Positions 7,630 to 46,287 of a stretch of 59,766 nt of DNA are shown piece by piece (the first letter of the stretch is position 1; every line of letters starts with the position of its first letter). The notes below the pieces were generated by a model that worked only from the letters and a program-made list of their open reading frames with translations, was not told the DNA's origin and did not search any database. The stretch comes from Candidatus Hydrogenedentota bacterium. GTDB taxonomy: Bacteria > Hydrogenedentota > Hydrogenedentia > Hydrogenedentales > JAEUWI01. The position numbers and the translations under genes are program-made. The stretch spans positions 1 to 59,766 of the forward strand of contig JACPGE010000006.1 in NCBI GenBank assembly GCA_016182605.1. The letters are read 5' to 3'.

Positions 7630-8547
7630 GTGGCTAAACTCGACTTCCGATACAAGCAAAACCGGCTCCAGCAACTCCGCGGTTTCTGCTATGCCGCCGC
7701 CGATGGAAGTATCTCCAAGGCGGCCGAGCGCATGTACCTCAGCCAGCCTTCAGTGTCCCTGCAAATCCAGGCCCTGGAGCGCGAATTGCACACCGTGCTC
7801 TTCGAACGGCGTGGCCCCAAAATCAAACTGACCCCCGAGGGCGAACTCCTGTTCAGTATCGCCATGCCACTTGTCGAAGGCATCGACCGCATCGAGGATG
7901 ATTTCACCTCGCGCCGGGGCGACGTGGAGAAGGGACGCATCGATCTCGCCGCGGGCTGGTCCACCATCCTCTATGTGCTTCCAGATTATGTCGAACGCTT
8001 CAAGGAGATTCATCCGCAGATCGAACTCAAGCTGCACAATGTTACCGGGCAGGAGGGGCTCGCGCAACTGCGCGCGGGCCACGTCGACTTCGCGGTGGGG
8101 CCCTTGCTCCATGTGCCGGAGGATATCGATTTCTATCCCGTCGTCTCCTATGAGCCGCTCTTGATCACCGAGCCACGCCACCCGCTTGCACAGAAAAAAA
8201 ACTTCACTCTGGAAGACATCAGCCACTACCCCTTCATCCTGCCACCACGCCATCTGAGCACCTGGAGCACGGTGGACTCCGTCTTCAAGGAGCAGGGACT
8301 CCCCTTTGAAGTGGCGATGGAGGTGGGCGGCTGGGAGGTGATCAAGAAATATGTGGAGCTGGGGCTCGGCATCAGCGTGATCATGAGCATTTGCATCACC
8401 GGCAACGAGAAGCTGGCCATCATTCCCGCGAACAAGTACTTCCCCAACCGCACCTACGGCGTGGTGCTGCGCAAGGGCAAGGTGCTCAGCCCGCAGGCGA
8501 AGCGCTTCGTGCAGTTGATGACCCCCGACATCAAGTTCGCGGACTAA
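7630..8547 (+). CDS. LysR-family regulator, probable controller of aceBA
   Basis: This 305-aa LysR-type transcriptional regulator has an N-terminal winged helix (about residues 14-75: GFCYAAADGSISKAAERMYLSQPSVSLQIQ without a break) and a CysB/Cbl-like substrate-binding domain from about 95. The start is GTG at 7630 with only a weak AGG upstream. It is divergent from aceB with the operator between them, so it probably senses a C2/C4 metabolite and controls the glyoxylate shunt. This would be an unusual partner, since enterobacterial aceBAK uses IclR/FruR/ArcA. The stop codon TAA lies within the CTAA at the edge of the repeat element that follows. Confidence 0.93.
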   Translation: MAKLDFRYKQNRLQQLRGFCYAAADGSISKAAERMYLSQPSVSLQIQALERELHTVLFERRGPKIKLTPEGELLFSIAMPLVEGIDRIEDDFTSRRGDVEKGRIDLAAGWSTILYVLPDYVERFKEIHPQIELKLHNVTGQEGLAQLRAGHVDFAVGPLLHVPEDIDFYPVVSYEPLLITEPRHPLAQKKNFTLEDISHYPFILPPRHLSTWSTVDSVFKEQGLPFEVAMEVGGWEVIKKYVELGLGISVIMSICITGNEKLAIIPANKYFPNRTYGVVLRKGKVLSPQAKRFVQLMTPDIKFAD

Positions 8548-8755
8548 CCCGCATATTTCACCACTCTATGGCCTTCAGATTACATGCGGATTGGCAACGT
8601 GGTGAAATATGCTCAGCGTGACGATGGCGCTGGCGTTCACTGGGTAGGCTAAATCACGGGCTGTTTGTTATTTTCAGACTTGAAGTTGAGTCAACGATAC
8701 GTATGAGCGGGCGTTATGACTACATCGTTTGGAGCCCGTGATTTATCCGGACTAA
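8544..8755 (+). repeat. MITE-like dispersed repeat, copy 1
   Basis: A 212-bp segment is shared with the inverted copy at 23001-23172. Both begin CTAACCCGCATATTTCACC and end in ATTTATCCGG(A/G)CTAA. The ends form imperfect terminal inverted repeats (CCCGCATATTTCAC against CCCGGATAAATCAC), and both sides carry CTAA, which would fit a 4-bp YTAR target duplication of the IS5 type. Both copies share internal CTAAATCACGGGCTGT and GAGCCCGTGAT stretches, which pair with each other. Copy 1 has about 40 extra bp that form a 14-bp inverted repeat (8551-8564 with 8599-8612). The left CTAA contains the stop codon of the LysR gene. Confidence 0.75.
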
Positions 8756-8935
8756 GGCACGAAGCCCGCCCCGGAGATCGGGCGCATACATTGAAATTCC
8801 CGCCCCCACAATGCATAATCGCCAGCAAATCCCCGCAAAATGGCGCGTGACGGCATTTTGTCGCACGCAGCAACCCAGCGCCGGATGCCGCAAAATATGC
8901 CCGGCACTGCCCTGCGATACACCGCTGAGAGAGTC

Positions 8936-10507
8936 ATGACCGCTGAGAACAAGCCCACTGCCGCAACCCCGCAAACGCTTCTTCCCAGCGTCCTGTGCTG
9001 GTCGCTCCTCGCCTGCGGCGCCTTCTTCCTCATGTGGGTCATGCTCCACCGCAATGGCAACGTCGCCGACGACGCCTTCATCACCCTCACCTATTCGAAG
9101 AACCTCATCGCCGGCAATGGGTTCGTCTACAACCACGGCCCGGCCACGCTCGGCACCACATCGCCGTTGCTCGCGCTCCTCTCCGCCGCGGCTGGCTTCC
9201 TCTTGCCCTTCCTCGAACTCCCCGTCATTGCCACCCTCATTGCCACGGCAGCCTGGGCCGCCTGGGGCTGGATCCTGTATGCCTCCCGTGGCCTCTTCAA
9301 CCTGAACCGCGCAGAGGCAACCCTCATTGCGCTCACCGTGTATACCACACGCTTCGTCCACCCCGCCTCGGAACAAACCCTCTTTCAATTGCTCCTGCTC
9401 GTCACGTTCGTGCTCTTCCGCATGCGCCAATGGCTGCTCTGCGGCGCCGCCGCGGGTCTCCTCACGCTCACGCGCGGCGAAGGCGTCCTGCTTCTCCCGT
9501 TGCTCTTTGCAACGCATTACTATCAGGAGCGCTTTCAATGGCGCGCCGCGTTGGCCGGTGTCCGCGGCGTCGCCGTGGGCAGCGCCGTCATCCTCGGTCT
9601 CTGGACGCTCTATGCCCTGCCCGAATTCGGCTCCGTCCTTCCACAGACGCTTAAAGTAAAAATCGCCCAAGGGCAAAACACCGGCTACTACGGCCGCTCT
9701 TTCCTGCCGGGACTGCTCGTCCGCATGACCACCTGGGACGCGGATGGGCTCCTGCTGCGCGTTGTCACGTGGAGCTTCGCCGTCATGGGCGCCTGGCGCG
9801 TCGTGCGCCGCCACCCGCACTTGGCCCTCTTCGGCGGCTGGATACTGCTCTATGTCGCCGGCTACACCTATCTCGGCGTGCCCTCCGTTTACATCTGGTA
9901 CCAATATCCCGTCTACTTCATCTGGCTGCTCCTCGCCGGCGTTGGCCTGGCATTTGCCGCGGAACGCCTCCTGACCTGGCCGCGCTTCTCCCGCCCCGTC
10001 CGCACCGCCCTCACGGCCCTCCTGCTCCTCTTCGTTCTCCTTCCCCGCTACTATGACGTCTGGGAACGCGCCAAAGACTACCCGGGCGATGTCCGCGCGG
10101 AGTCCTACAAATACGTCGCCGCCTGGCTCCGCGAAAACACCAAGCCCGAAGACACCGTCGGCTCCGGTGAAGTCGGCTACCTCGGCTATTACACCTCCAA
10201 CAAGATCATCGACATGGCCGGACTCATCTCCCCCGATCCCCAGGCCGTGCTCGATATCCCCTCGTGGGAAGAGGCCGTGTCACGCTTTGCGCCGCAATAT
10301 CTCGTCGAGTGCCTTCCCACTGCCACCACCAGCGAAAAGGACGTCGTGTTGCGTGGAGACGTGCGCTACGAACCCGTACTCACGCGCCCGCTGCTCCTCC
10401 CCTGGCGCACCCCGCCCGAACACCTCTGCGTGCTCTTCCGGAAACTGCCGCAGCCCGAAGCCACTCCATCGGATAACGCTCCGGCGCAGGCCCCACCGGG
10501 CAACTGA
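8936..10507 (+). CDS. Membrane glycosyltransferase-like protein (GT39/ArnT-type fold)
   Basis: This 523-aa polytopic protein has about ten hydrophobic segments and the early loop motif DDAFITLTYSKNL typical of the GT-C dolichyl-phosphate mannosyltransferase/ArnT clan, where the paired Asp residues act in catalysis or metal binding. Such proteins move a sugar from a lipid carrier to a lipid or protein on the outer face of the inner membrane. A soluble C-terminal part starts near residue 390 (YKYVAAWLRENTKPEDTV), resembling uncharacterised bacterial membrane proteins with a 'GEVGYLGYYT' segment. The frame is open from 8840, but ATG 8936 just before the first membrane helix is more likely. Acceptor and donor are unknown. 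Confidence 0.75.
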   Translation: MTAENKPTAATPQTLLPSVLCWSLLACGAFFLMWVMLHRNGNVADDAFITLTYSKNLIAGNGFVYNHGPATLGTTSPLLALLSAAAGFLLPFLELPVIATLIATAAWAAWGWILYASRGLFNLNRAEATLIALTVYTTRFVHPASEQTLFQLLLLVTFVLFRMRQWLLCGAAAGLLTLTRGEGVLLLPLLFATHYYQERFQWRAALAGVRGVAVGSAVILGLWTLYALPEFGSVLPQTLKVKIAQGQNTGYYGRSFLPGLLVRMTTWDADGLLLRVVTWSFAVMGAWRVVRRHPHLALFGGWILLYVAGYTYLGVPSVYIWYQYPVYFIWLLLAGVGLAFAAERLLTWPRFSRPVRTALTALLLLFVLLPRYYDVWERAKDYPGDVRAESYKYVAAWLRENTKPEDTVGSGEVGYLGYYTSNKIIDMAGLISPDPQAVLDIPSWEEAVSRFAPQYLVECLPTATTSEKDVVLRGDVRYEPVLTRPLLLPWRTPPEHLCVLFRKLPQPEATPSDNAPAQAPPGN

Positions 10508-13968: not shown

Positions 13969-15515
13969 TTTTCTCGTTCCCACGGAGGACCGCTTGTCAT
14001 TACACATAAGTATTGAGTTGTGTGGCAAGTATGTATCCCTGTGTCATATCGCTTAGCCGTTTCCATCCTCTCCAAATGCTGAGCCATCCTGGTGGCCCAT
14101 CGTTCTTGCGGTTCAGGTAGCCACCGATTCGTGCGATGGTGTTCATGAGTGTTCTGTTGGTCCAACCGTTGATGGGACGCCCGTATTTTATTCCGAGCAC
14201 CTTGAGGCTCTCGGCGGGAATGCTCTCTTCGCTAATTGGGTCGTCAGGGTGGGTATTGGCAATGAGTTTTAGTTGAAGCAGTTCAACGGCAATGACGGCG
14301 TGGATGGCGAGCAATGGCTTTATGCGATCAGCCGTCGATAATTGCGAATCTTCGATGTTGGTTCCCGTTTTGAGTGCTTTGTGATACTCCTCGATCAGCC
14401 AGCGGCAAGCATAGGCGCCTATCACGCGTCTTGCGTGTGCGAACGTGTCACAGGGCCAACTGCTGAGCAAGACCCAGTGCACCGCGTCTTGCTCGTTGGG
14501 CGGGTCTACCTCGCGGACCTCAACGAGCCCAGTCTGTAACGGCGCGTAGCGGGATTGGAATTCGCGTTTCGGACGGATAGCGGCATTCAAGGAACGCACC
14601 TCCACTTGAGCGCGACGGGCTGTGACGCTTGGACGTGCGCGAAGATCGAGCCCGTAGACACCCAGGACCGGAGCTTGCGCTATCGCTTCGAAGATGTCTT
14701 GTTCCAGAGGTAATGTCTTGCGGCGCTGGGCCGCGCGAAGCACCCAATCGATATTGCGTTCGCCACAGTCCGCCATGACCTCGAAAATATCGCACTCGCG
14801 ATCCGCCACCAGCGCCCAGCGGGACGAGCCGGGCGGCCCATCCGTCCCACGCAAGGCCCGTCCCCACCGATCCGATTCGCGCGGCACAGATCGCTTGACA
14901 CTCTTGCGCTTGGCCTTCTTCCTGTCTTTGCGTGTGCCATCCGGCGCTTCGCGCGCCCAGCATTCTTGACTGAAAAGCCCCTCCAGTGTCACTTCGGGCT
15001 CATACGTGGCGGACCATTGTGCGACCTTTGCCGCAAGACAGGTATGGACAAGCAAGCCTTGAGAGCCTTTGTTGCTCATCGGACCCATACCTGCAATCGA
15101 GTCGCGCTGACTGAATGAGAGGGCTGTGGTGTCCTCAATCAGAAGAAACTCGCCCGCATTACGGCACACGCCTCGCGTACGCTCGACATGAGCACGTAAA
15201 ACCTCTTCGTGGGTTACACTGTCATGACTGAACAATCGGTAGGCCGCCTTCGTTGCCGCTTCATTTCCCAAGGCACGCGGCAAAGTACCACACGGATGCT
15301 CCCGAAGACACGCCGCCACCTCCACCAATCGCCGGCGAAGCCGAAGATCGGGCAGATGTGCCCCCCAGAACTGACCGTGCGCCCAATCCAGTGCTTCTTC
15401 CATAAGTAGCCTCCTCTCGCTGACTTACAGAATAAACGCAACATATGGTATTCTTGTTGACTACAACATACAACATATGAGTAATGACAAGCGGAGGACC
15501 GTGGGAACGAGAAAA
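13969..15515 (-). mobile_element. IS4-family insertion sequence (Tn5/IS50-like)
   Basis: A 1547-bp element bounded by 35-bp imperfect inverted repeats (13969-14003 and 15481-15515). The outer 17 bp (TTTTCTCGTTCCCACGG) and inner 13 bp (CGCTTGTCATTAC) match exactly, and only 5 bp between them differ. It encodes one transposase. The bases just outside do not form a visible 9-bp target duplication, so either one edge is misplaced or the site has been rearranged. Confidence 0.8.
14000..15403 (-). CDS. IS4-family transposase, Tn5-like
   Basis: A full-length 467-aa transposase. The N-terminus (residues 5-60, WAHGQFWGAHLPDLRLRRRL) is the Tnp DNA-binding domain of Tn5-like enzymes. The DDE residues are visible: Asp91 in IEDTTALSF, Asp201 in VADRECDIFE, and the YREK signature Y-2-R-3-E-6-K in YACRWLIEEYHKALK. 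A C-terminal dimerisation region follows. A strong AGGAGG precedes ATG 15403, and the stop lies inside the left inverted repeat. No frameshift or premature stop is seen, so it may still be active. Confidence 0.95.
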   Translation of the reverse strand: MEEALDWAHGQFWGAHLPDLRLRRRLVEVAACLREHPCGTLPRALGNEAATKAAYRLFSHDSVTHEEVLRAHVERTRGVCRNAGEFLLIEDTTALSFSQRDSIAGMGPMSNKGSQGLLVHTCLAAKVAQWSATYEPEVTLEGLFSQECWAREAPDGTRKDRKKAKRKSVKRSVPRESDRWGRALRGTDGPPGSSRWALVADRECDIFEVMADCGERNIDWVLRAAQRRKTLPLEQDIFEAIAQAPVLGVYGLDLRARPSVTARRAQVEVRSLNAAIRPKREFQSRYAPLQTGLVEVREVDPPNEQDAVHWVLLSSWPCDTFAHARRVIGAYACRWLIEEYHKALKTGTNIEDSQLSTADRIKPLLAIHAVIAVELLQLKLIANTHPDDPISEESIPAESLKVLGIKYGRPINGWTNRTLMNTIARIGGYLNRKNDGPPGWLSIWRGWKRLSDMTQGYILATQLNTYV

Positions 15516-23000: not shown

Positions 23001-23172
23001 TTAGCCCGGATAAATCACGGGCTCCAGCCGACGGAGCCATAACTCTCACTCACACTTGTTGTTGCCCAAACCTTGGATCCGGAAATAACAGACAGCCCGT
23101 GATTTAGCCTGCCCAGTGAACGCCAGCATCGACGTTACGCTGAGCATAAAAGTGGTGAAATATGCGGGTTAG
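23001..23172 (-). repeat. MITE-like dispersed repeat, copy 2
   Basis: This 172-bp segment is the inverted copy of the element at 8544-8755. Read on the minus strand it starts CTAACCCGCATATTTCACC (from 23172) and ends ATTTATCCGGGCTAA (to 23001). It keeps the shared core (GCTCAGCGT, CTGGCGTTCACTGGG, CTAAATCACGGGCTGT, GAGCCCGTGATTTATCCGG) but lacks the extra inverted arm of copy 1. The CTAA at its minus-strand beginning again contains the stop codon of the preceding open frame. Confidence 0.75.
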
Positions 23173-23327
23173 CCGCTGGACTTGCGCTCCCGTTTGCGTT
23201 CCGACGCCCGGTTGAGGGACGCCATGGACGCCACGCTGCCACAAATCAGATCGTGCTCAGGCAAAAGCCGGGCCAGCCGCGAACGCGCCGCGCGCTCCTG
23301 GGAAGTGAACTTGTTTCGAGCCGGCAT
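23169..23327 (-). CDS. Small protein resembling the N-terminus of DUF6788
   Basis: A 52-aa frame from ATG 23327 with GAGGG just upstream. Residues 8-36 (SQERAARSRLARLL then PEHDLICGSVASM) resemble the opening of DUF6788-type small proteins, which continue with a CGKPxCRC motif. Here that motif is absent and a basic tail (SERKRERKSSG) ends at TAA inside the CTAA edge of the repeat. It may be a truncated remnant or a short unrelated gene. The frame is open upstream to 23633, but that part is not protein-like. Confidence 0.35.
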   Translation of the reverse strand: MPARNKFTSQERAARSRLARLLPEHDLICGSVASMASLNRASERKRERKSSG

Positions 23328-23556
23328 GATCCCTCGCATCCTGATAGCGACAAGCATATCAGAATGCCGCCCAAGGTCAACCCTTTTTCTGGATGCGAAT
23401 TTGCTCCGCACCGTCCCCACAACCCCAACGCACACCGATGTGGCCCCCGCTCTTCGCCAGTCCCCCCGCTTCGCCAGACTTGCAGCCCGCCCTCGTTCCC
23501 GGTTAGATTGATACTCCTGTGCAAGGCTGTAACGTATCCGGAGGTGATCCCTTCCC
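23328..23556. other. Spacer before the PSCyt1 gene
   Basis: No gene is seen. The last bases carry GGAGGTGATC (23539-23548), a full match to the anti-Shine-Dalgarno end of 16S rRNA, which fixes the start of the next gene. Confidence 0.5.
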
Positions 23557-26500
23557 ATGAGCCGCTCCATCCTGTCGCTCCTGCTCTTTATCGGGCCGAT
23601 GGCGCCCCTGCCACTCGCCGCCGAGGGGAGCATCTCCTTCGACCGGCAGATCCGCCCTATCCTCAGTGGCCATTGCTACCAATGTCACGGCCCGGACGCC
23701 GAGGCCCGCAAAGCAGATCTCCGGCTCGACGATGCCGAGGCGGCCCTCGCCCTCCACGACGGCCGCGCGGCCATTGTGCCCGGTGACCCCGATGCGAGCG
23801 AACTGATCCGGCGCATCACGACGGGCAACCCGGACGATCGCATGCCGCCCGCCGAAACGGGCAAGACCCTCACTGAAGAGCAGATCGCTTTACTGCGTGC
23901 CTGGATCGCCGAGGGTGCGCAGCGCAGCACCCACTGGGCCTTTGCCCCGCCACAACGCGAAGCGATCCCCGAAGTGCAAAATACTGCGTGGGTGCGCAAT
24001 CCCGTCGACGCCTTCATCCTCGCGCGTCTCGAACTGGAGGGCCTCCAGCCCGCGCCCGAGGCCGATCGCGTCACTCTTTTGCGGCGGTTGAGCCTCGACC
24101 TGACCGGCCTGCCGCCCACGCCCGAGGATGCCGGGAAACTGCTTCAGGATACGCGCTCCGATTGGTACGAGCGACTGGTCGATCGTCTCCTCGACTCCCC
24201 CCACTACGGCGAACACTGGGCGCGCCACTGGCTCGATGCGGCGCAGTACGCCGACTCCGACGGCTTCGAAAAGGACAAGCCGCGTCAGGTCTGGGCCTGG
24301 CGGGACTGGGTCATCAACGCATTCAATAATGACAAGCCCTATGACCAGTTCGTCGTCGACCAGATAGCCGGGGATCTCCTGCCCGGCGCGACGCAGGAGC
24401 GGCGCGTGGCCACGGGCTTCCTGCGCAACAGCATGATCAATGAAGAGGGCGGCATCGATCCGGAACAGTTCCGCATGGAGGGCATGTTCAACCGGATGGA
24501 CCTCGTGGGGCGCGCGGTGCTGGGCCTCACGGTGCAGTGCGCCCAGTGTCATTCGCACAAATACGACCCGCTCAGCCACACCGAGTACTACGGCATGATG
24601 TCCTTTCTCAACAATTCGGAAGAGGCCTGCATCACGGTCTACTCCAAATCGGAAGAGGCGCAGCGCAAGAAACTCCTGGCCCTTATTTCGGATGTTGAAA
24701 AAGATCTCAAACAGGAGCGCCCGGATTGGCAGGCGGAGATGGCCCAATGGGAGGCTTCTGTGCTGGAGACGCCCCGCCCCGATTGGGAAACGCTTGCACT
24801 CACCTTTGACGACAACTCGGCCGGTGGGCAGAAGTGTATGCCCGTGGGTGATGGCTCCTACCTTGCCCAGGGCTACGCGCCCACACGCTTCCAACCCAAG
24901 ATGACGGCCACCACCACCCTTCCGAAGATCACCGCGGTGCGCCTGGAACTGCTCCCCGATCCGAACCTGCCCTGCGGTGGACCCGGCCGTTCCATCTACG
25001 GCACCTGTGCCCTCGCCGAGTTTGAACTGCGCACCGCCACGGATGAAACACCTATTGCCGACTATGACAAGTGGGCCCCCGTCAAAATCGCCTCCGCCAT
25101 CGCGGACGTGAACCCGCCACAACGCCTGCTCGGCCCCGAGTACCCGGTAAAGGGCGGCAAGGACAGCCGCCTCACGGGTCCCATTGAATTTGCACTCGAC
25201 GGCAACGCGGACACGGCCTGGACCACGGACCTCGATCCCGGCCGGCGCAACCAGGCGCGCTACGCCATCTTCACGCTGGCCGAACCGATCACCGTCACTC
25301 CCGGCATGCGCCTCGCCTTCCGCCTCAACCAGAATCACGGCGGCTGGAACAGCGACGACAATCAGACCAACAACCTGGGCCGTTTCCGTATCGCGCTTAC
25401 CAGCGCGGAAACCCTGCCCGCTGCTGCCGTGCCCGCCGCCGTGTGGAATGCCCTTGAAACGGCACCCAGCGCACGCAACGCCGGCCAGCGCGCCGCCCTC
25501 TTTGAGTACTGGCGCACCACGGTCCCCGATTTCCGCGAAGTCAACGCGCGTATCGACGGCCTCTGGCAGGGCCATCCCACGGGGGCGACGCAACTGGTTT
25601 TGCAGGAGCGCACCGCGCCCCGGCAAACGCACCGTCTCGATCGCGGCGACTTCCTGAGTCCCGCCGAGGCCGTTGCACCCGCCGTGCCCTCCTTCCTGAA
25701 TCCCTTGAAGACCCAGGGCGCACCGGGCCGGCTCGACTTCGCGCGATGGCTTGTTTCACCCGAGGCGCCCACCACGGCCCGCGCCTATGTGAACCGCCTT
25801 TGGCAGCGCCACTTCGGCCGGGGCATCGTGGAGACCTCCGCCGATTTCGGCATGCAGGGCGATCCCCCCACCCATCCTGAACTGCTGGACTGGCTCGCGG
25901 TCGAATTCATGGAATCCGGATGGGACATCAAAAAGATCCACCGCCTTATCGTCACTTCCGCCACCTACCGGCAGGCCTCGCAGGTCACGCCAGACCTGCT
26001 CGACAAGGATCCCTACAACACGCTGCTCGCCCGCGGCGCCCGGTTCCGCGTGGAAGGCGAGACCGTGCGCGACATCGCCCTCGCGGCCAGCGGCCTCCTC
26101 AACGACACGGTGGGCGGCCCCAGCGTCTACCCGCCCGCGCCCGCATTTCTGTTCGAGCCCCCCGCGAGCTACGGCCCCAAGGTGTGGAACACGGAGACAG
26201 GCCGTGAAAAATACCGCCGCGCCCTCTACACCTTCCGCTTCCGCAGCGTGCCCTATCCCGCATTGCAGGTCTTCGACACGCCTGCGGGCGACGCACCCTG
26301 CACTCGCCGCGAACGCAGCAACAGCCCGCTGCAGGCGCTCACCACCTTAAACGAGCCCCTGTTCTTCGAGTCTGCGATTCACCTGGCGGGTGTGGCGCTG
26401 GCGGATGGCGGCGCCACTGATCGCGAGCGCATGGAATTTGCCTTCCAGCGTTGCGCCACGCGCACACCCGACGCTGCCGAGATCGACACGCTCCTGGCCT

Positions 26501-28123: not shown

Positions 28124-28740
28124 GCATAGGACATTGCGCGTAATTAGGTCACGAAGTTGGTGCTACCAAACTCTGTTTTAAATTGCGTTCATCTTGGCAT
28201 ATTTGGTTCGGCGCGAGTCCCTCGCCCCGGCGGCTGGCAGCGCAACCAAGAGTTTTGCCTCTTCCAGCCGCGGAGCGGAGGCTGGCAGCGCAGCCAAGAG
28301 ATTTTCGTCCTCCAGCCGCGGAGCGGCGGCAGCAATTAGCCTGGGGCGTGAGCCCCAGGAATCCATCCATCAAGACATCCGGAATCCGCGAAGCGGATGG
28401 CACCGAATACGTCCACAATTTTTTGCGCGATCCAGAGCATGGGTACCAAGCCCAGTGAAAAACCCACGGGAATTCCGTGCCACGATTGGGTATTCCGGCG
28501 GCGGATCGGCATGCAGTCCATCGAATACATTTAACACCAAGTCTGGGAATGCAGCGCTGTTTGTGCCATCCGCTTCGCGGATTCCACAATGGGGAGATGC
28601 CAGTTTCTGGGGCTCACGCCCCAGGCTAATTGCTGTCGCTCCTCCGGAGCTGAGGAAACAAATTGAAGTCACAAAACCGAGTGGATGCAGCCAAACTCCA
28701 TTCGAATTTGCATTTATTCTGGCATACTTATTCTGACGCG
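28124..28740. repeat. Gene-free repeat region with tandem units and a long inverted repeat
   Basis: Two tandem 48-bp units (28232-28279 and 28280-28327, GGCTGGCAGCGCA start) are followed by an interrupted inverted repeat. Arm A 28330-28358 (contains TTAGCCTGGGGCGTGAGC) pairs with 28609-28637, and arm C 28381-28403 (GGAATCCGCGAAGCGGATGG) pairs with 28563-28585, leaving a spacer of about 160 bp. The left (28160-28216) and right (28687-28742) margins are loosely similar direct copies (CCAAACTC ... TGGCATA). Open frames here are all artefacts of the repeats. It could form a large RNA hairpin upstream of the sigma-factor gene. Confidence 0.7.
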
Positions 28741-45339: not shown

Positions 45340-45489
45340 AAAGGGCTTCGCGAGGCTCCTGCAACATCGCTATTGACGAATCGGGGGCGTGTGAAGCATA
45401 CTTACGGAGCAGACAAGCGCAGGATTGGTAGAGGTCGCCGGAAACGGTGGCAGCCCGAACGGGTGGGATCCTCGAACCTGGGGTCTGCA

Positions 45490-46287
45490 TTACTTATCCG
45501 GTAGATCGGCGAACCACGCGAGATGTGGGTTCGCCGATTTGAGTTTTGGCAGTTCCTGGGGCCAAAACTTGAGTCCGTAGCCAAGAACCGAACCTTTATG
45601 CCGATACACGGTTGGAAACAATAACCGGGCATAACGGTCTTCGGCCTCTCCATACTGATTAACGTTCGCCGCGTAATAAAAACTGGAGGCGACCGCGTCG
45701 GCCACCTGAAGGCCCGCTAATTGATCATGGTTCACCGCACGAACGGACTCAGGCAATATCACACTCCAATCGATTCGAACGTCCAGCGGATCACTCTGAG
45801 TCTGGAGAGACCGGAGGTACTGCCGCAAGTCCTCATAGGACATAATGCTACGATTTGAAAATATCAGGTCTGCCCGCCCATCCCCTTCTTTGTCCATTCG
45901 GTAATCCCTGCACAACCAGGATACCCGTTCCAACAACAATCGGGTGGCATAGCGGTAAAGCAAGAACTTCTCAGTTTGAAATTTCTCCGTCTCCTGAATG
46001 CTCGGCTTATAGATGAGCACCGTTACCGTCCGTATCGGCTCTCCTGCAATCTTGCGCACATAAGGGACACGCATCTCGTGCTTCAAATCTGTGAAATGCA
46101 GTTGCTTCTTGGGTTGCTTCCCCAACAGTTGCCGCACATCCTTCATCACTTCGACCAGTCGCAGGTCATTCTTGGCGCGCACCACCACGGCAGACAGCAC
46201 CAACCATCGTCGGCTGCCTGAGCCGTCGGAATTAAAAACGAACCCCTCATCACCAGATTCGTCGATGTAGACGCGAAAGCTGTGCAT
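45490..46287 (-). CDS. DUF3800 protein
   Basis: This 265-aa protein starts with the DUF3800 signature VYIDESGDEGF; further parts are KKQLHFTDLKH, LIFSNRS and QVADAVASSFYYAAN. The fold is predicted to be RNase H-like, with the two acidic residues in DESGD possibly metal-binding, but no activity is established. DUF3800 genes are often found in mobile or defence-rich regions, and the surroundings here (gene fragments, repeats, TA pair nearby) fit. The GC content is visibly lower than in the neighbouring operon. No strong ribosome site precedes the ATG. Confidence 0.85.
   Translation of the reverse strand: MHSFRVYIDESGDEGFVFNSDGSGSRRWLVLSAVVVRAKNDLRLVEVMKDVRQLLGKQPKKQLHFTDLKHEMRVPYVRKIAGEPIRTVTVLIYKPSIQETEKFQTEKFLLYRYATRLLLERVSWLCRDYRMDKEGDGRADLIFSNRSIMSYEDLRQYLRSLQTQSDPLDVRIDWSVILPESVRAVNHDQLAGLQVADAVASSFYYAANVNQYGEAEDRYARLLFPTVYRHKGSVLGYGLKFWPQELPKLKSANPHLAWFADLPDK

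What the first reader, a model, noticed from the sequence alone, without database searches (positions are those of the whole stretch)
8544..8755. MITE-like element, two inverted copies in the window, each entered at the CTAA of a stop codon
Copies at 8544-8755 (+) and 23001-23172 (-) share both ends and an internal core. Terminal inverted repeats are visible, and CTAA stands at each edge. In both copies the first CTAA supplies the TAA stop of the gene before it (the LysR gene and the small DUF6788-like frame). Insertion with CTAA duplication would leave the stop intact, which could explain tolerance directly behind genes. The CTAA target fits IS5-type (YTAR) chemistry.
Basis: partly seen in the sequence, partly recalled or inferred. 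Interest (0 to 1): 0.7.

Follow-up and report, generated by a model that had tools for sequence, protein, structure and literature searches.

The report
IS1380-type mini-transposon at gene ends
The two window copies belong to a large family of short, gene-less jumping DNA pieces in this bacterium that appear to be moved by an IS1380-type transposase, and because their target sequence (YTAR) can itself contain a stop codon they often sit exactly at the end of a gene without damaging it.

Summary
Two copies of a MITE-like element lie in the window: 8548-8751 (+) and 23005-23168 (-, with a 40-nt internal deletion). The genome holds many more: 193 left-end and 298 right-end matches at <=2 mismatches, the second count including internal arms. 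CTAA is not constant. The flanking 4-mers vary together as a target-site duplication: 65 of 91 copies have identical flanks (shuffled mean 14.4, maximum 26), consensus YTAR, occasionally 5 bp. The IS5 assignment is not supported. The ends match IS1380-family transposons. The 3' end of a broken IS1380 element in the same genome is identical over 17/17 bases to the MITE left end. Full IS1380 transposons in relatives have the same two kinds of end. In the own assembly only two 5' and two 3' fragments of the transposon remain, at contig ends. Copies are strongly over-represented at stop codons: 19 of 50 against 12 of 173 control YTAR sites. This excess is not distinguishable from a general preference for, or tolerance at, gene 3' ends. 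Other MITE families with the same end type have spread in two genomes of another family of the phylum. I judge it a new member of a known kind.

The parts
8544..8547 (+). left target-site copy CTAA; its TAA is the stop codon of the LysR gene (5-bp reading: 8543-8547 ACTAA)
8548..8751 (+). MITE copy 1, 204 bp
8548..8564 (+). left end CCCGCATATTTCACCAC, 17/17 identical to the 3' end of the IS1380 fragment in the same genome
8551..8612 (+). left hairpin: arms 8551-8564 and 8599-8612, 14 bp perfect
8647..8748 (+). right hairpin: arms 8647-8662 and 8733-8748, 16 bp, 94%
8733..8751 (+). right end AGCCCGTGATTTATCCGGA (family: ...CCGGG)
8752..8755 (+). right target-site copy CTAA (5-bp reading 8751-8755 ACTAA)
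7630..8547 (+). LysR-type regulator gene ended by the left target copy
   Evidence: PF03466, PF00126
23005..23168 (-). MITE copy 2, 164 bp, 40-nt deletion in the left hairpin
23169..23172 (-). left target-site copy CTAA of copy 2; stop of the 154-aa frame
23001..23004 (-). right target-site copy CTAA of copy 2 (5-mer GCTAA on both sides)
23169..23633 (-). 154-aa open frame ended by copy 2; no Pfam match, gene status unproven

Best explanation
The element is a non-autonomous miniature transposon (MITE). Its two ends are recognised by an IS1380-family DDE transposase encoded by a transposon of the same genome, whose middle part is missing from the assembly. The transposase joins the ends CCCG(C/G)ATA.. 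into a YTAR target and duplicates 4 bp, sometimes 5. YTAR reads YTAR on both strands and contains TAA or TAG, so a copy that lands on a stop codon leaves that codon intact in the flanking duplicate, on either strand and in either orientation. Copies that hit coding sequence or promoters are presumably lost, which leaves survivors mostly at gene 3' ends and in tandem arrays sharing the YTAR. Shown: copies, covarying target duplications, end identity with IS1380 fragments, stop-codon enrichment. Inferred: mobilisation in trans and the role of selection.
For: Target duplication: 65 of 91 left-right copies have identical flanking 4-mers, shuffled mean 14.4, maximum 26 of 10,000 shuffles; of the 57 with YTAR on both sides, 53 are identical. 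Transposon: PF13701 elements occur in 13 of 68 genomes of the phylum. L190/L202 in a same-family genome are 99.94% identical over 1,718 bp, and the L190 3' end is 16/17 identical to the MITE left end. L189 is flanked by TTAG on both sides, its ends match 13/17 each, and it sits on the TAG of a sulfatase-like ORF. L189 and L190 encode IS1380 transposases (NF033539, 395 and 396 bits, cut-off 180). The own genome has two 3' fragments (C94, C126; 17/17 left end) and two 5' fragments (C99, C118), which stop at the same internal points at contig ends; flanks are CTAA on C118 and C126 and CTAG on C99 and C94. Stop codons: 19 of 50 against 12 of 173 control sites, OR 8.2, p 4e-7. Ten stop-ending ORFs were tested (of 21 listed) and 10 of 10 have Pfam domains.
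Against: No complete IS1380 transposase gene is in the own assembly (0 matches; only 29 residues at E 0.001). The MITE right end matches the own IS 5' end only 12/17, so the immediate parent may be another IS1380. The MITE interior matches neither IS (only the ends). 26 of 91 copies do not have identical 4-mers. L190 and L202 do not show matching flanks (CTAG/TTAG and TTAG/CTAA). The C99/C94 pair does not rejoin a clean MITE: an IS1182 element abuts C94.
Confidence: 0.88

Rival explanations
1. A MITE mobilised by an IS5-group transposase with YTAR targets.
For: The 4-bp YTAR duplication fits what I recall of the IS5 group.
Against: PF01609 gives 5 matches in the own genome; four were typed as ISAs1, IS1634, IS1182 and IS4, the fifth (L107, itself interrupted by a copy) was not typed. 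None has the MITE ends at its termini. The IS1380 ends match far better.
Confidence: 0.04
2. The transposase actively prefers stop codons or gene 3' ends (for example via transcription termination or a G-rich extended target), beyond selection.
For: At stop 19 of 50 against 12 of 173. G directly before YTAR in 35 of 50 insertions against 42 of 173 controls. One own-genome IS fragment (C118) and the relative's IS L189 also sit on stop codons.
Against: Against other sites within 100 bp of a gene 3' end the excess is not significant: 19:15 against 12:17, OR 1.8, p 0.3. L190 and L202 are not at convincing gene stops.
Confidence: 0.2
3. A REP/BIME-like or IS200/IS605-type single-strand element using its hairpins, with CTAA as the cleavage site of both ends.
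For: Two strong hairpins (fold z -4.1), tandem arrays sharing YTAR, half elements.
Against: The left and right tetranucleotides covary over ten different sequences and CTAA and TTAG are about equally frequent (27 and 19, p 0.30), which a fixed right cleavage site would not give; the ends match a DDE transposon.
Confidence: 0.03
4. A host-adopted structured RNA or terminator module that only looks like a MITE.
For: Strong folding, location at gene 3' ends.
Against: No Rfam match at gathering score on the element, no terminator-like site in 8400-8950, loops vary and reassort, target duplications.
Confidence: 0.05

Closest known systems
IS1380 family insertion sequences (NF033539 / PF13701)
   Same: Both end types, YTAR target with 4-bp duplication, occurrence in the same phylum and as fragments in the same genome. 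PMC3281130 (passages seen) lists IS1247 of this family with a 5-bp duplication.
   Different: 204 bp without a gene; interior unrelated to the transposons examined.
piggyBac superfamily (eukaryotes)
   Same: Ends that begin CCC and TTAA-type targets; PMC10813416 (passages seen) gives TTAA as the usual duplication, with rare TTAG and CTAA, mostly CCC-type end motifs, and uses IS1380 as outgroup.
   Different: Here YTAR with CTAA commonest; no direct comparison of transposases was made.
Chunjie MITE of Geobacter uraniireducens
   Same: 178-235 bp, dozens of intergenic copies with conserved ends and many partial copies (review PMC10969869, passages seen).
   Different: Parent family and target not compared; the original paper is not held.
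MITEPye1 of Paracoccus yeei
   Same: MITE with terminal repeats of a DDE insertion sequence, intergenic, long stem-loop (PMC11578231, passages seen).
   Different: Assigned there to IS1182, 1-3 copies.

Membership tests
MITE related to IS1380 | short, no transposase gene, many copies | tested here: met
   204-205 bp in 81 of 99 left-right pairs; 193 left-end matches
MITE related to IS1380 | ends shared with the autonomous transposon | tested here: met
   left end 17/17 with the own IS 3' end; right end only 12/17 with the own 5' end, 13/17 with L189 and L190
MITE related to IS1380 | target-site duplication like the autonomous transposon | tested here: met
   YTAR 4 bp; L189 TTAG/TTAG; own fragments CTAA/CTAA and CTAG/CTAG. 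L190 and L202 do not match on their two sides
MITE related to IS1380 | complete IS1380 transposase in the same genome | tested here: inconclusive
   only 5' and 3' fragments at contig ends
MITE related to IS1380 | moved in trans by that transposase | not testable with these tools
   needs a transposition assay
IS5 family (IS5 group) | IS5 transposase with matching ends in the genome | tested here: not met
   5 PF01609 matches, four typed as other families, none with these termini
IS5 family (IS5 group) | YTAR 4-bp duplication | tested here: met
   not exclusive to IS5. That IS5 uses YTAR is recalled
piggyBac superfamily | CCC...GGG ends and TTAA-like duplication | tested here: met
   resemblance in mode of action only
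piggyBac superfamily | piggyBac transposase domain | not tested
   transposases of relatives were typed as IS1380

The most novel reading that the evidence does not exclude
In this phylum, IS1380-type transposons and their MITEs use a piggyBac-like CCC...GGG / YTAR chemistry whose target doubles as the TAA/TAG stop codon on both strands, and the transposase itself steers to gene ends, so that the family can reach very high copy number with little cost to the host.
Probability: 0.18. Interest if true: 0.65.

Novelty: new member of a known kind. Interest (0 to 1): 0.42.

Why it matters
It assigns a high-copy repeat of a poorly studied phylum to its likely transposon family, explains many contig breaks of this assembly, and gives a simple rule (the target contains a stop codon that the duplication preserves) for how a DNA transposon can sit directly behind genes. 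It also offers a bacterial set of CCC...GGG / TTAA-like elements for comparison with piggyBac.

Tried and rejected
IS5 partner: searched PF01609 (5 matches, typed where possible), rejected. IS701-type partner: PF13546, 0 matches. IS1380 by PF13701 in the own genome alone: 0 matches, which would have misled; the fragments are too short for the profile. Omnitrophica 20-mer match (L103): a single site without element structure; about 0.5 such exact matches are expected by chance in 257 billion bases (my arithmetic), so rejected. Viral contigs: 0. Rfam at gathering score: no match on the element. Terminator scan of 8400-8950: none. RNAalifold over all copies: weak consensus, because the loops belong to different types; no covariation claim is made. 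A first 5-bp reading of the duplication was revised: 51 of 97 pairs match over 5 bases and 66 of 97 over 4 (the 97 include some false pairs that begin at an internal arm); unambiguous cases show mostly 4 bp, with a minority of 5 bp (where the right terminal base is A, the left one is A in 5 of 7).

Rows dropped: from 99 left-right pairs I used 91 after removing those with 3 mismatches in the left end or longer than 210 bp. For the stop test 11 of the 91 had flanks that were too short, leaving 80; 11 nested ones and 19 without YTAR on the left were then left out, giving 50. The gene calls come from my own simple codon-score finder, which misses some genes: copy 1 of the window was called 'inside' a gene there although it ends the LysR gene. 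The end lists show only the first 100 places each, so the set of copies is a sample.

Full report
Observation. The two copies are present as described: 204 bp at 8548-8751 (+) and 164 bp at 23005-23168 (-), each with CTAA on both sides. The first CTAA supplies the TAA of a LysR-type gene. The second supplies the TAA of a 154-aa frame without any Pfam match, so that gene is unproven.

Copy number. The window lies in an unnamed 6.76-Mb genome of 130 contigs. The left end occurs 193 times and the right end 298 times at up to 2 mismatches, against 2 and 0 for reversed patterns. The right-end count includes the internal arm of many copies, so I estimate very roughly 150-190 loci. In the lists and the stretches fetched, 13 contigs begin within 264 bp of an end match and several finish within about 240 bp of one: the repeat breaks the assembly.

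Anatomy. A copy has a left hairpin (the left end and its inverted internal copy, 14 bp perfect), a conserved linker, and a right hairpin (16 bp, 94%). Among 47 copies of 204 bp the ends are 97% identical on average, the core 87%, the left loop 77%, the right loop 60%. Loop types reassort between left and right halves (84 copies). Short elements also occur: two left ends alone (68 bp, e.g. L033 and L122, flanked by TTAG/TTAG and CTAG/CTAG) and one two-right-end element (108 bp, L074, flanks not matching). The 204-bp form therefore looks like two palindromic mini-elements fused, with their inner termini mutated. This fusion is an inference.

Target duplication. In 91 copies, 65 have identical 4-mers on both sides (shuffled mean 14.4, maximum 26 of 10,000 shuffles). 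With YTAR on both sides the count is 53 of 57 (shuffled mean 17.0, maximum 29). So CTAA is not fixed; the duplication is YTAR, usually 4 bp, in a minority 5 bp. Both window copies read as 5-mers too (ACTAA and GCTAA). Tandem copies share one YTAR (15 of 97 have a neighbour).

Transposon. PF13701 finds IS1380 transposases in 13 of 68 genomes of the phylum but not in the own genome. Two near-identical copies in a same-family genome and one in another family carry the MITE's two end types. Their transposases are IS1380 by NCBIfam (L189 and L190 tested). The own genome has the 3' part of such a transposon at the ends of contigs C94 and C126, with a left end identical 17/17 to the MITE's, and the 5' part at the start of C99 and the end of C118, coding for MNTECSASQLEFQGFG.... 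The two 5' and the two 3' fragments each stop at the same internal point. The flanks pair as CTAA (C118, C126) and CTAG (C99, C94). The C118 copy lies on the TAA of an AAA_14/DUF4143 gene. The C99 copy lies in the internal CTAR of a MITE copy. The C99/C94 pairing is uncertain, because an IS1182-type element abuts C94.

Stop codons. I joined the flanks of each insertion and compared the target with all other YTAR sites of the same flanks, using a codon-score gene finder. Of 50 usable insertions 19 are at a predicted stop codon, against 12 of 173 controls (OR 8.2, p 4e-7; similar at two other score thresholds). Ten of ten stop-ending ORFs tested have Pfam domains, among them one with the RF3 C-terminal domain. 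In L015 and L180 one YTAR ends two convergent frames. However, among sites at or within 100 bp behind a gene 3' end the excess is 19:15 against 12:17 (p 0.3), so a general preference for, or tolerance at, gene ends explains the data as well. G precedes the target in 35 of 50 insertions against 42 of 173 controls; it is also the element's usual terminal base.

Spread. With the left-end type CCCGSATATTTCACCAC (<=1 mismatch), 16 of 68 genomes of the phylum match, own included; two genomes of one other genus have 103 and 68 matches. In stretches from them I found 175-bp and 42-64-bp palindromic elements, many with identical YTAR-like flanks (in the L229-L248 stretches, 10 of 17 left-right pairs identical; one more in L215). 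Separate IS1380-type MITE families have thus grown in this phylum; that they arose independently is an inference from their different lengths and interiors. The right-end 20-mer is nearly absent from 59 relatives (4 of 60 genomes match, own included, the other three with 1-2 mismatches).

Verdict. A new MITE family of the IS1380 type. It works like other MITEs; its target rule makes stop-codon insertions harmless. Against my reading: no intact transposase in the assembly, a right end that matches only 12/17, and an interior of unknown origin.

Noticed in passing
window 28314-28359 (-) and 28606-28651 (+): Two Acido-Lenti-1 RNA matches (RF01687) as an inverted pair between two genes.
   Followed up: no
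window 45408-45494 (+): DUF3800-VII RNA match (RF02967, 76.9 bits).
   Followed up: no
window 13969-15515: IS4-family element: 467-aa transposase (NF033590, 298 bits) with 53-nt inverted repeats, 81%.
   Followed up: partly
L106 1241-3268 (own genome C94): IS1182-type element with CTAG on both sides directly abutting the IS1380 3' end; another family using a YTAR-like target next to the MITE system (its NCBIfam score of 233 bits is under the cut-off of 270).
   Followed up: partly
L107 678-2133 (own genome C4): A transposase-like reading frame interrupted by a MITE copy with CTAT on both sides.
   Followed up: no
L229-L248 (genomes G041, G043): Other palindromic MITE families of 42-64 and 175 bp with the same end type and YTAR-like flanks.
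   Followed up: partly
L120 30-1073 (own genome C91): A copy sits exactly on the stop codon of a gene with a peptide release factor RF3 C-terminal domain.
   Followed up: no
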